The notes below the pieces were generated by a model, which was given only the letters and a program-made list of their open reading frames with translations, searched no databases and had not been told where the DNA came from. Shown here piece after piece: positions 9,550 through 51,668 of a stretch of 64,000 bases of DNA; position 1 is the first letter of the stretch; the number at the start of each line of letters is the position of its first letter. Position numbers and translations under genes: made by a program. Origin of the DNA: an uncultured delta proteobacterium (GTDB taxonomy: Bacteria > Myxococcota > Myxococcia > Myxococcales > 40CM-4-68-19); contig CAIWCD010000046.1 in NCBI GenBank assembly GCA_903911145.1, forward strand, positions 62,001 to 126,000. The letters are read 5' to 3'.

Positions 9550-10503
9550 ATGCGGAATGGCAACGACTTCGTCGTTTTCTCTGGCAACTCGCACAAGAGC
9601 TTGTCGGTCGAGATCTGCGAATATCTCGGCGTGCCGCTCGGCAAGTGCGAGGTCGGGAAGTTCTCCGACGGCGAGATCCAGGTCGAGATCCGCGAGAACG
9701 TGCGCGGCCGCGATGTCTTCCTCGTGCAGAGCACGTCGATGCCGGTGAACGATCATCTGATGGAGCTGCTCATCATGATCGACGCGGCCAAGCGGGCTTC
9801 GGCGGCGTCGATCACGGCGGTGGTTCCCTACTTCGGATATGCGCGGCAGGATCGCAAGGTGGCGCCGCGTGTGCCGATCACTGCGCGCCTCGTCGCGGAT
9901 CTCATTACGTCAGCTGGTGCGGATCGATTCGTCTCGATGGAGCTGCACGCGGGCCAGATCCAGGGCTTCTTCGACATGCCCTCCGATCACCTCTACGCCG
10001 CGCCCGTGCTGCTCGAGCACATGCTCTCTCGCCACCCGAATCCGGATGAGGTCGTGGTGATCAGCCCCGACGCGGGCGGCGTCGAGCGCGCGCGCGCATA
10101 CGCCAAGCGGCTCGGCTGCACGCTGGCGATCGTCGACAAGCGGCGCACCAAGGCGAACGTGGCCGAGGTGATGAATCTGATCGGCGACGTGAAGGGCAAG
10201 TCGGCGATCATCCTCGACGACATGGTCGACACCGCCGGTACCCTCACGCAGGCGGCGAAGGCCGTTGTGGAGCACGGCGCCAAGCGCGTCTCCGCCTACT
10301 GCGTGCATCCGGTGCTTTCGGGCCCGGCCATCCAACGCATCGAGGAGTCGGTGCTCGACGAGGTGATCGTCGCCAACACGATCCCGCTGCAGGAGCGCGC
10401 GCGCAGCTGCAAGAAGATCTCGCAGCTCTCTGTCGCACGCGTCTTCGGCGAGGCGATCCGGCGCATCTACAACGCGGATTCGCTCTCCAGCCTGTTTGTT
10501 TGA
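9550..10503 (+). CDS. prs: ribose-phosphate pyrophosphokinase (PRPP synthetase)
   Basis: Makes PRPP from ribose 5-phosphate and ATP for nucleotide, His and Trp synthesis. The 317-residue protein is of normal length. It shows the flexible loop region VPYFGYARQDRK, the ribose-phosphate loop ISPDAGGVERARAYAKRLG and the PRPP motif DDMVDTAGT. The start is the ATG at 9550, with GGAG eight bases upstream. The stop codon TGA (10501-10503) lies inside the first of three tandem copies of a dispersed palindromic element. Confidence 0.97.
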   Translation: MRNGNDFVVFSGNSHKSLSVEICEYLGVPLGKCEVGKFSDGEIQVEIRENVRGRDVFLVQSTSMPVNDHLMELLIMIDAAKRASAASITAVVPYFGYARQDRKVAPRVPITARLVADLITSAGADRFVSMELHAGQIQGFFDMPSDHLYAAPVLLEHMLSRHPNPDEVVVISPDAGGVERARAYAKRLGCTLAIVDKRRTKANVAEVMNLIGDVKGKSAIILDDMVDTAGTLTQAAKAVVEHGAKRVSAYCVHPVLSGPAIQRIEESVLDEVIVANTIPLQERARSCKKISQLSVARVFGEAIRRIYNADSLSSLFV

Positions 10504-10553
10504 GTGCAAACTAAATTGATTTGAGTGCCAATCAATTTAGTTTGAGTCCCAAC
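10498..10553. repeat. three tandem copies of the GTTTGAGTGCCAAC element
   Basis: Three 14-base copies lie at 10498-10511 (GTTTGAGTGCAAAC), 10519-10532 (ATTTGAGTGCCAAT) and 10540-10553 (GTTTGAGTCCCAAC). Their starts are exactly 21 bases apart. The prs stop is inside copy 1, and the stop of the convergent PEGA gene (10537-10539) is just before copy 3. The array is AT-rich in a GC-rich neighbourhood. Confidence 0.85.
10511..10540. terminator. perfect 10-bp inverted repeat between convergent genes
   Basis: CTAAATTGAT (10511-10520) pairs perfectly with ATCAATTTAG (10531-10540) around a 10-base loop that is itself the middle repeat copy. It sits where prs and the PEGA gene converge, so it could be a bidirectional terminator. 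However, the stem is AT-rich and has no T-run, which is unlike a classic intrinsic terminator. Confidence 0.4.
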
Positions 10554-49397: not shown

Positions 49398-49427
49398 ACA
49401 AGGCAGCCGCACCCCGGTTGGCGTCGT

Positions 49428-51668
49428 TCAAAGATGCGTGCGGAAGAAGGCGAAGACGCGCTCCCAGTAGCGCTGCAGAAGAGCTGGCTCATGAAACTGG
49501 TGCGTCTGCCCGAGTTGCGGCAGGAGCTCGAACGGCTTCCCCGCACGGAAGAGCGCGTCGCAGAGCAGCAGCGACTCGCTGAAGTGGACGTTGTCGTCGG
49601 CGGTGCCGTGAGAAATCAGCAGCGGCCGATGTTCGAGCGTTGGCTGCGACGCTGCATCGAGGAGCCCGTTGCGAGCGTAGAGCGGATTTCCCTCGGGCGG
49701 AGGGACGCCGAGATACCGTTCGGTGTAGCCCGTGTCGTAGTTCATCCAGTCGACCACGGGAGCGCCCGCGACGGCGGCCTTGAAGACGTCGGGGCGGCGC
49801 AGCACAGAGAGCGCCGCGAGATAGCCGCCGAAGCTGTGCCCCATCGCGCCGACGCGCGTCAGATCGATTGCCGGTTCGCGCGCAGCCCACGCGTGCAGTG
49901 CAGCGATCTGATCGTCGAGCGGCACCTCGCAGAACTTCCCTGCGATCGCGCGCTCCCAGTCCCGGCCACGAAGCGGCGTGCCGCGGTTGTCGACGCGCAG
50001 CACGAGAAAGCCGTGATCGGCGATCCATTGATCGAGCAGGTAGGCCGCGCTCTGTGCACGCACGGTGTTGACGTGCGGTCCTCCGTAGAGCTGGACGATG
50101 AGCGGATAGTTGCCTTGTGCAACAAAATCGCGCGGTCGCACGAGGAGGGAATGGAAACCTCCGTCGGCGCGATGGCCGTCGGCGCAGAGCGGCGGCTCAC
50201 CGACCTGTGCGAACTCGATCCGCGGAGCGGGAGGCATCGGTTCGGCGACCGAGCGCAACTGGCCGGCGATGGTTCCGTCCTGGCGGACCAGTTCGAATCG
50301 CGCACCGCCGCGCAGTGGAGCGCAGACGCGCAGATGCGTCCGTCCGCTCTGCGCGAAGACAGCAGTGATGCTCTCAGCCACGCCGTCTGCGGGCGCGAGC
50401 TTGCTCGCCGGTAGCGTGTCGTTCTCGTCGTGAAGCCGTTGACGCCACAACTCGGACGCCAGCGGTGTCGGGTGGCGCAGGAGAAACAGCGTGTCGGTTG
50501 CCTCGTCGAATCCGGCAATCGAAGCGAAACGAAATGCCAGTGGAGTCAGTTCACGCAGGAGTGTGCCGTCGGCCGCGTGATGGAACAACTGCAGCGCGCC
50601 TGCCCCCTCGCTGCTCCAGAGAAAGCCCGAGCTATCCGGAAGCCAGAGGAGGTCGCGCGCCGAGTTGAGGAACGCTTCGTCGTGCTCGGTGAGCAGCGTG
50701 CGGGCGCGCAGTTGCGCGTCGAACGAGATCAGCGCCAGGTCGCGCTGGTCGCGGGTGAGCGCGATCAGGAGCAGCTTCTCAGGTGCCGCCCATTCCACGC
50801 GCGCGACGTACTCCCAATGCGGCTTGAGCGGCAGCCACCGCGTCTCTCCTCCGGTCGCCGGGACGATGCCGAAGCGGCACTTCGCGTTATGTCGCCCCGC
50901 GCGCGGATAGGCCTGCGGCGCGGGCGCGCGAAACGCGTGCGCCGGGTCCTGCAGGAAAAGCTTCTCGACCGATTCTTCGTCGACCTCTTCGTAGAGAAGC
51001 GCGGCCGAATCGGGCGACCACCAGAAGCCGCGGAAGCGCGAAAACTCTTCCTGTGCGACGAACTCTGCGCGCGCGTGCAGCAGCGTCGAGGTTGCGCCGT
51101 GCGTGAGCTGGACCGCTCCTGGGCCGGGCTGGCGCTGCTCCTCGACATGCACGGGCACCACCCAGAGTTCGCCGGCGCGGACAAACGCACAGCGGGTGCC
51201 GTCGGGCGAGAGTTCGGGATCAAAGAGCGCAGCGCCCGTTTCGTCAGGGCCGGCGATCTCTCTCGCACGCCCGCCCACGAGCGCGATGACGAAGGCCCGA
51301 CCGCCCAGCATGAAGAGCGCGAGATGACCGTCGCTGGAGAGTTGGTAGCTGACGATGCCGCTTGCGGTGATGCGCATACGCTCGCGCCGGGCCTGCTCCT
51401 CTGGCGTCAGCGAATCGCCGCTGTCGCCGAGCAGGGATTCGCGGGAGGCCAGCTCCCGCTCACTGCCGCTCTCGAAATCAACTGCGTAAAGACGCAGTTC
51501 GGTGTCGCGCGGGCCGCTGCGCAGAAAGAGCGCGTGCCGTCCGTCGGGAGTGAGCTGGATGCTCTGCGGCATCCCGTTGGTGAAGCTGCGAGTCTCGAGC
51601 AGCGTGCGGAGAAAATCGTGATCCGAGATGCTTTGAGTGCCAACCATCTCGCTGCCCGTGATTTCCAT
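49428..51668 (-). CDS. S9-family (dipeptidyl peptidase IV-like) serine peptidase
   Basis: A 746-residue enzyme with a seven-bladed propeller (about 1-480) and a C-terminal alpha/beta hydrolase domain. The catalytic Ser lies in GAMGHSFGGYLA, the Asp in HGTADDNVHF and the His in GQTHQFHEP. No signal peptide follows the start at 51668 (MEITGSEMVG), so it should be cytoplasmic, consistent with trimming imported peptides. The start and the POT transporter stop overlap as TGATG. One copy of the dispersed palindromic element encodes residues 9-13. Confidence 0.93.
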   Translation of the reverse strand: MEITGSEMVGTQSISDHDFLRTLLETRSFTNGMPQSIQLTPDGRHALFLRSGPRDTELRLYAVDFESGSERELASRESLLGDSGDSLTPEEQARRERMRITASGIVSYQLSSDGHLALFMLGGRAFVIALVGGRAREIAGPDETGAALFDPELSPDGTRCAFVRAGELWVVPVHVEEQRQPGPGAVQLTHGATSTLLHARAEFVAQEEFSRFRGFWWSPDSAALLYEEVDEESVEKLFLQDPAHAFRAPAPQAYPRAGRHNAKCRFGIVPATGGETRWLPLKPHWEYVARVEWAAPEKLLLIALTRDQRDLALISFDAQLRARTLLTEHDEAFLNSARDLLWLPDSSGFLWSSEGAGALQLFHHAADGTLLRELTPLAFRFASIAGFDEATDTLFLLRHPTPLASELWRQRLHDENDTLPASKLAPADGVAESITAVFAQSGRTHLRVCAPLRGGARFELVRQDGTIAGQLRSVAEPMPPAPRIEFAQVGEPPLCADGHRADGGFHSLLVRPRDFVAQGNYPLIVQLYGGPHVNTVRAQSAAYLLDQWIADHGFLVLRVDNRGTPLRGRDWERAIAGKFCEVPLDDQIAALHAWAAREPAIDLTRVGAMGHSFGGYLAALSVLRRPDVFKAAVAGAPVVDWMNYDTGYTERYLGVPPPEGNPLYARNGLLDAASQPTLEHRPLLISHGTADDNVHFSESLLLCDALFRAGKPFELLPQLGQTHQFHEPALLQRYWERVFAFFRTHL
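51631..51644 (+). repeat. dispersed palindromic element at the S9 peptidase start
   Basis: CTTTGAGTGCCAAC, flanked by perfect 7-bp arms CGAGATG / CATCTCG. On the gene strand it reads VGTQS, in the same phase as the parE copy. It lies 24-37 bases inside the gene. Confidence 0.85.

What the first reader, a model, noticed from the sequence alone, without database searches (positions are those of the whole stretch)
10498..51644. Dispersed palindromic element GTTTGAGTGCCAAC, ten copies at seven loci
Seen directly: 10498, 10519, 10540 (tandem), 12341 and 12356 (pair in parC), 15713 (parE), 17479, 25184 (kinase stop), 33018 (amidase), 51631 (S9 peptidase start). The core is GTTKG-N4-CMAAC. The best copies add outer arms (GGCGAGAT/ATCTCGCC at 15713; CGAGATG/CATCTCG at 51631), making a roughly 28-32-bp palindrome. 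Copies at 10498 and 33018 are identical. Two or more exact 14-mers in 64 kb are not expected by chance. The placement (ParC head, ParE insertion, gene starts, gene ends, one intergenic array) fits neither a promoter operator nor a typical insertion element. It could be a nucleoid or chromosome-organisation site, a small mobile repeat, or a site for an unknown DNA-binding protein. I do not recognise it.
Basis: seen in the sequence. Interest (0 to 1): 0.78.

Follow-up and report, generated by a model that had tools for sequence, protein, structure and literature searches.

The report
Dispersed palindromic protein-binding site in myxobacteria
A 24-letter mirror-symmetric DNA word is scattered hundreds of times through this bacterium's chromosome, inside genes and just behind them, and it looks like a landing site for an unknown protein that was written in place by mutation and kept, rather than a jumping repeat.

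Summary
All ten copies are where stated, and the element is genome-wide: 145 exact TTTGAGTNCMAA against 0 in the reversed control; 113 units in 83 clusters in 1.129 Mb. The unit is a 24-bp palindrome, ARATSG-TTKG-NNNN-CMAA-CSATYT, single or in arrays stepped mostly by 15 or 21 bp.

At the alignable in-gene sites relatives mostly have other letters at the same length (KsgA, FabH, M3 peptidase), so sites arose by substitution; one gene, lpxB, is longer at its site. The core arms do not covary, which favours a double-stranded binding site over an RNA hairpin. Intergenic copies hug stop codons.

The same palindrome with another centre recurs in a sister genus and, strongly, in Minicystis rosea. 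Two sister species keep it inside one gene while the encoded protein changes there.

Best reading: chromosome-wide sites for an unidentified dimeric DNA-binding protein. The only lead to it is a MarR-family gene whose start the site overlaps in 4 of 4 genomes examined of genus g4; 12 other homologues lack this. Uptake-sequence, operator and HIP-like readings stay open; the REP/transposase reading is disfavoured. My paper searches found no description.

The parts
10493..10558 (.). Array of three units (cores 10499-10510, 10520-10531, 10541-10552; step 21 bp) filling the gap between two convergent genes; the stop codon of the first gene (10501-10503) lies in unit 1 and the opposite gene ends at 10537
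12336..12374 (.). Pair of units (cores 12342-12353, 12357-12368; step 15 bp) in the low-complexity N-terminal part of the topoisomerase IV/gyrase subunit A gene (12260-14842), encoding [10 protein letters not shown]
15708..15731 (.). Single unit (core 15714-15725) in a variable linker of the gyrase-B-like gene (14858-17023), encoding VGTQT
17474..17497 (.). Single unit (core 17480-17491) inside ORF 17142-17675, encoding LHTN; no Pfam family for that ORF
25179..25202 (.). Single unit (core 25185-25196) over the 3' end of a protein kinase gene (25192-26460, minus) and 52 nt before an M17 aminopeptidase gene
33013..33036 (.). Single unit (core 33019-33030) inside an amidase gene (32071-33609, minus), encoding FALK
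51626..51649 (.). Single unit (core 51632-51643) near the start of an S9 peptidase gene (49428-51668, minus), encoding VGTQS

Best explanation
The element is a family of double-stranded DNA binding sites for an unidentified dimeric protein. Each half of the dimer reads ARATSG-TTKG; the four central bases are loosely specified and differ between lineages. Preferred steps of 15, 21 and (in Minicystis) 42 bp between units suggest dimers that touch when bound side by side. The sites are made in place by substitution and kept, in codons that tolerate them and just behind stop codons. The spread-out layout that avoids gene starts fits a structural role on the chromosome (loop or nucleoid organisation) better than classical regulation. 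Shown here: enrichment, symmetry, preferred steps, in-place origin at several genes, conservation in sister species. Inferred: dimer, cooperativity, structural role. Lead only: a MarR-family winged-helix protein as the binder.
For: Enrichment over reversed controls. 24-bp palindrome. K and M of the arms do not covary: p 0.33 in 106 units of G000, p 0.67 in Minicystis. Steps within 200 bp in G000: 15 (20), 21 (9), 30 (3), 42 (3), 27 (1), 36 (1); Minicystis: 42 bp in 9 of 50 adjacent steps up to 110 bp. In-gene sites without length change: 8 of 21 comparable clusters gap-free over the site and 20 residues each side, DNA examples. Of 32 clusters not inside genes 78% lie within 60 nt of a stop codon, 38% within 60 nt of a start, random about 20% each; Minicystis 68% within 80 nt of a stop, 5% of a start. 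One orthologous site kept inside a gene of G010 and G011 while permitted positions changed the protein, another behind a stop codon in G004 and G007. Same arm architecture in Minicystis rosea. Palindrome over the start of a MarR-family gene in G004, G006, G007, G010.
Against: No protein identified. 12 of 16 MarR homologues, including both of G000 and the one of Minicystis, have no site at their start. A test for a 10.5-bp helical period over the 50 Minicystis steps was not significant (p about 0.09), and 15 bp is not a whole number of turns. One flank position in G000 (40 of 65 paired, 27.8 expected) and one in Minicystis (p 0.048) hint at pairing of the arms. No loop, domain or terminus pattern: 63 Minicystis loci do not differ from uniform (KS p 0.36; eight bins p 0.07). 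13 of 21 compared clusters have gap columns nearby and lpxB is 16 residues longer at its site. Neighbouring units share their centre more than random pairs, which plain selection does not predict.
Confidence: 0.42

Rival explanations
1. Uptake-sequence-like self mark: competent cells prefer DNA that carries the word, so it accumulates by drive in neutral places and differs in dialect between lineages.
For: In-place origin, lineage dialects, copies in tolerant codons and intergenic DNA, near absence from five atypical contigs. Dialects and drive are described for known uptake sequences (passages of PMC3630211, and PMC1939737).
Against: PMC1939737 (passage) says that uptake sequences are not palindromes and mostly not biased to places downstream of coding sequences; here both hold. 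Density is low: 83 clusters in 1.129 Mb. Competence was not examined.
Confidence: 0.2
2. Ordinary operator of a (MarR-type) regulator whose sites have multiplied, most of them without regulatory effect.
For: Palindrome over the start codon of a MarR-family gene behind an isochorismatase gene in four g4 genomes, with arms kept and centres different.
Against: In G000 and Minicystis most intergenic copies are at gene ends, not starts; their MarR homologues lack the site; many copies are inside genes.
Confidence: 0.17
3. REP-like or other mobile hairpin that spreads by copying itself into gene ends.
For: Gene-end bias, arrays, patchy expansion, neighbours alike; lpxB longer by 16 residues at its site.
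Against: Gap-free alignments at conserved genes; no PF01797 match in G000, 1 in Minicystis, although site-bearing G010 has 20 and G012 2; core arms do not covary.
Confidence: 0.12
4. HIP-like product of methylation and mismatch repair, without a binding protein.
For: Made in place, palindromic, replaced by other words in some lineages, as described for HIPs (abstract and passages of PMC4390886). Many copies contain GATC at the flanks.
Against: 22-24 bp with an unspecified centre is long for a methyltransferase word; preferred steps between units and gene-end bias are not expected. No methyltransferase was looked for.
Confidence: 0.06

Closest known systems
SlmA and Noc binding sites (nucleoid occlusion; passages of PMC4726725)
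   Same: Short palindromes at many chromosomal places, read by a dimeric protein
   Different: About 24-52 and about 70 sites, scarce near the terminus; here several hundred units estimated in G000 and no site-free region seen in Minicystis
DNA uptake sequences of Neisseriaceae and Pasteurellaceae (passages of PMC3630211 and PMC1939737)
   Same: Dispersed, in genes and between them, dialects between lineages, gradual in-place evolution
   Different: Those are not palindromes and not biased to gene ends; here both, and much sparser
HIP1 and alternate HIPs of cyanobacteria (abstract and passages of PMC4390886)
   Same: Iterated palindrome, replaced by another word in some relatives, function unsettled
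   Different: 8 bp and tied to methyltransferases; here 24 bp, gapped centre, arrays with preferred steps
REP/BIME elements with Y1 (RAYT) transposases (recalled)
   Same: Palindromic, at gene ends, in arrays, patchy between species
   Different: REPs are inserted and pair as hairpins; here mostly no length change, no covariation of the core arms, no Y1 transposase in G000
Rickettsia palindromic elements (recalled)
   Same: Palindromes in frame inside genes
   Different: As recalled, those are insertions of over 100 bp; here 24 bp and mostly no insertion
Operators of MarR-family regulators (recalled)
   Same: Palindrome of about 20-24 bp at the regulator's own start in genus g4
   Different: Hundreds of copies in G000 and Minicystis, mostly in genes or behind them

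Membership tests
REP/BIME (Y1-transposase) elements | Copies are insertions | tested here: not met
   8 of 21 comparable in-gene clusters gap-free, DNA; exception lpxB
REP/BIME (Y1-transposase) elements | A Y1 (RAYT) transposase in the genome | tested here: not met
   PF01797: 0 in G000 (98.96% complete draft), 1 in Minicystis, 20 in G010
REP/BIME (Y1-transposase) elements | Arms pair as a hairpin | tested here: not met
   K/M of the core arms do not covary in G000 or Minicystis; two outer flank positions hint at pairing
DNA uptake sequences | Preferred uptake of DNA carrying the word | not testable with these tools
   needs a transformation assay
DNA uptake sequences | Over-represented dispersed word with lineage dialects | tested here: met
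DNA uptake sequences | Word not palindromic and not biased to gene ends (as stated in PMC1939737) | tested here: not met
   palindrome; gene-end bias
Nucleoid-occlusion sites (SBS, NBS) | Scarce near the terminus | tested here: not met
Nucleoid-occlusion sites (SBS, NBS) | Bound by SlmA or Noc | not tested
   no binder known
HIP sequences | Linked to DNA methyltransferases of matching specificity | not tested
   none searched
MarR operator | Palindrome at the start of the regulator's own gene | tested here: inconclusive
   met in G004, G006, G010 (17 of 18 arm letters) and G007 (15 of 18); not met in the other 12 homologues found
MarR operator | Bound by the MarR protein | not testable with these tools
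   needs a gel shift

The most novel reading that the evidence does not exclude
Some myxobacteria carry a chromosome-wide set of palindromic sites for one dimeric protein, a bacterial counterpart of an architectural or insulator protein, placed at gene ends and written into codons against protein constraint, which expanded separately in two distant lineages (G000 and Minicystis rosea), each with its own dialect.
Probability: 0.25. Interest if true: 0.82.

Novelty: new variant of a known kind. Interest (0 to 1): 0.62.

Why it matters
A dispersed site family that shapes codon choice inside conserved enzymes, prefers fixed steps between units and has lineage dialects points to selection or drive for a chromosome-wide function that my searches did not find assigned in Myxococcota. 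Minicystis rosea is a named strain with a complete genome and 111 strict copies, so the binder could be fished out directly. If the binder is structural, this opens a nucleoid system in a group with very large genomes; if the word is an uptake mark, it would be an unusual, palindromic one.

Tried and rejected
Insertion of a mobile repeat: rejected for the alignable in-gene sites, with lpxB as an exception. The window's own sites in the ParC-like and ParE-like genes could not decide it: both lie in low-complexity linkers that differ in both relatives compared.

RNA hairpin or terminator: core arms do not covary; I saw no T-run behind the copies that I read by eye. No Rfam family in the window.

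A universal habit, each relative with its own palindrome: no comparable family in 281 kb of G001 or 400 kb of G002; a longer repeat and a CGTACG pair surfaced instead. A Myxococcus-type genome could not be sampled.

Phage origin: 5 stretches of viral contigs matched the pattern; I did not study them.

An autoregulated binder in G000: among the genes starting within 250 nt of a site I recognised, by reading alone, an ECF-sigma-like protein and no clear site-specific regulator.

A single conserved site in the order: 9 of the 16 genus-g22 genomes have one match; in the six loci read it precedes a channel-like gene (labels from reading). Not pursued.

In print: searches; those aimed at this element listed nothing that describes it, judged from listings. 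The Minicystis genome paper PMC8436480 was searched for terms only.
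Full report
CHECK OF THE OBSERVATION. The ten copies exist at the given coordinates. The common core is TTKG-N4-CMAA; 5 of 10 fit the stated 14-base core (mean 0.02 in shuffles), and the headline 14-mer has no exact copy in the window. The window is C46:62001-126000 of a 5.30-Mb draft genome in 53 contigs (G000). In that genome TTTGAGTNCMAA occurs 145 times and its reversed form 0 times; the palindrome ATNNTTKGNNNNCMAANNAT occurs 188 times, reversed form 0.

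ANATOMY. In 90 distinct clusters found with a unit pattern (in the window, in 30 loci fetched because they hold a site, and in larger stretches) conservation runs about 6 bases beyond the 12-base core on each side (180 flanks): ARATSG-TTKG-NNNN-CMAA-CSATYT, 24 bp. A weight matrix made from the 65 single-unit clusters found 113 units at score 11 or more (3 in the reversed control) and 106 at 18 or more (0 in control) in 1,128,897 bases. It was trained partly on the same bases, so the scores of those units are flattered; the control is not. Few units have middling scores. All pairs of units within 200 bp in G000 lie 15 (20), 21 (9), 30 (3), 42 (3), 27 (1) or 36 (1) bp apart. At 15 bp neighbouring units share their flank (CCAATCATTGG).

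DOUBLE-STRANDED SITE RATHER THAN RNA. The K and M positions that face each other do not covary: of 106 units T-A 32, T-C 28, G-C 26, G-A 20 (Fisher p 0.33); in Minicystis p 0.67. On the other side: the fifth flank base paired in 40 of 65 single copies against 27.8 expected, and the S flank base in Minicystis gives p 0.048.

PLACE. With a simple gene caller of my own (84% of bases coding), 51 of 83 clusters are inside genes, 26 intergenic, 6 across a gene edge; 51 is fewer than 84% predicts (p 4e-7). In genes all three frames occur (22, 17 and 14 of 53, an overlapping but different set of 89 clusters). Of the 32 clusters not inside genes, 78% are within 60 nt of a stop codon and 38% within 60 nt of a start; for 2,000 random intergenic positions both shares are about 20%. 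Convergent gaps hold 11 of 32 against a 16% share of intergenic bases (p 0.014). Five contigs (C42, C43, C45, C47, C50; 152 kb; GC 0.615-0.648) hold 1 cluster against 12.8 expected (p 4e-5). I chose these five after seeing the counts, and C42 has no lower GC than site-rich C49, so that p value is too good; whether they are foreign DNA or binning errors was not tested. Clusters per 25 kb are over-dispersed (mean 2.11, variance 3.81).

NOT INSERTED. In KsgA the displayed DNA aligns without a gap with G001; with G002 the site is ungapped and gaps lie elsewhere. The nucleotidyl transferase gene aligns without a gap with G002. FabH carries two units where G001 and G002 have the same total length, with small gaps that cancel. 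At protein level 21 of 51 in-gene clusters had a spanning hit in the G001 and G002 DNA that I held (part of which had been fetched for matching these regions); 8 are gap-free over the site and 20 residues on each side, five of them with hits above 50% identity: M3 peptidase, a DAGK_cat-domain protein, nucleotidyl transferase, KsgA, FabH (families). The other 13 have gap columns, several in low-complexity linkers. Against the reading: lpxB (C48:149968) has 16 extra residues around its site, and two other clusters 2 and 5 extra. The relatives' letters at the sites differ, so these sites were written by substitution.

RELATIVES. TTTGAGTNCMAA: 0-6 in each of 59 relatives (the one with 6 has 13 in its control). 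Palindrome ATNNTTKGNNNNCMAANNAT in 98 relatives: G010 10, G011 8, G006 6, G012 4, the rest 0-2; G001, the one same-genus genome, 0. In sister genus g4 the centre is mostly AGCA, AGCT or AGGT instead of AGTG. Over 194 relatives of the phylum a stricter pattern gave more than one match only in family f1 and in G012. Whole-genome strict counts: Minicystis 111, G000 21, a Byssovorax MAG 9, G010 5, seven others 1-2, controls 0 (all but G000, G010 and G012 were chosen because they had a match). The Minicystis word is RATCG-TTTGAGCTCAAA-CGATY (86 copies); 127 units in 504 kb of loci chosen for holding a site, control 0; the commonest step is 42 bp, 9 of 50 adjacent steps up to 110 bp, but a test for a 10.5-bp period over these steps was not significant (p about 0.09). 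In the 51 Minicystis loci given to, 37 clusters are intergenic and 14 in genes; 68% of the intergenic ones lie within 80 nt of a stop and 5% within 80 nt of a start, against 23% and 26% at random. The 63 Minicystis loci do not differ from a uniform spread (KS p 0.36; eight bins p 0.07).

SELECTION ON DNA. Among 38 loci held for family f1 and G012, two orthologous pairs of sites were found and two further sites had aligned G000 sequence without a site. Nearly all these loci were fetched because they hold a site, so no rate of conservation can be given. In a gene of the Cons_hypoth95 family (rsmD by recalled name) of G010 and G011 the site stays while local DNA identity is 74%, and its changes fall on permitted positions although they alter the protein (LDGLSSNHLL and LDGLSTNDLL). 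In G004 and G007 (local identity 71%) the site follows directly behind a stop codon; its centre is turned round and one outer base differs.

LEAD TO THE BINDER. In G004 a palindrome overlaps the start codon, as I place it, of a MarR-family gene (PF12802, PF01047) behind an isochorismatase gene. The homologues in G010, G006 and G007 have the same arrangement with other centres (17, 17 and 15 of 18 arm letters). These are 4 of the 7 g4 genomes listed; the other three were not examined. The other 12 homologues, in G000, G001, G003, G005, G012, Minicystis and the Byssovorax MAG, have none at the start, and G002 has no homologue at E 1e-10. The homologues of site-rich G000 are the most distant class (44 and 47% identity). 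This suggests, and does not show, that a winged-helix protein of this kind reads the palindrome.

UNEXPLAINED. Neighbouring units share their centre in 65% of 46 Minicystis pairs (39% at random) and in 10 of 30 G000 pairs (16% at random), although the spacers that I read look unrelated. Old local duplications under selection, or short-range conversion, could do this.

COMPARISON. It works most like a dispersed set of operators or nucleoid sites. I do not file it as a nucleoid-occlusion site, an uptake sequence, a REP or a HIP: for the first three a defining feature was tested and not met, for the last none could be tested. I found no description of the element in the papers searched (seen as listings); most papers of subscription journals are not in that library.

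Noticed in passing
L437:9952, L437:10931, L444:5406, L444:7124, L446:6368 (G001): A longer repeat family with an inner palindrome GCACCTCGC-N4-GCGAGGTGC and nearby GGAGGG-N5-CCCTCC, unrelated in sequence to the finding.
   Followed up: partly
L415:664 and 726, L417:13488 and 13551, L421:17 (G002): CGTACG-N3-CGTACG motifs, in two places as pairs about 62 bp apart, in what looks like intergenic DNA.
   Followed up: no
L218, L219, L221, L222, L225, L227 (genus g22): One ATNATTTGAGNNCAAACAAT-like copy per genome in 9 of 16 g22 genomes listed, before a channel-like gene in loci read; a cation-efflux-like gene follows in two of the six (labels from reading).
   Followed up: partly
L085:9292-10569 (G000 C48:149968): The LpxB gene is 16 residues longer around its site than that of G002, the clearest length gain at a site in a conserved enzyme.
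   Followed up: no
G000 contigs C42, C43, C45, C47, C50: 152 kb with one site cluster and, in C42, C43, C45 and C47, low predicted coding share; may be foreign DNA or binning errors.
   Followed up: no
window 37447-37538 and 38135-38226: A 92-nt direct repeat, 84% identical, 688 bp apart.
   Followed up: no
L284, L287, L295, L306, L331, L336, L353 (Minicystis rosea): Intergenic arrays of three or more units in which the units of an array mostly share one centre variant while the spacers look unrelated.
   Followed up: partly
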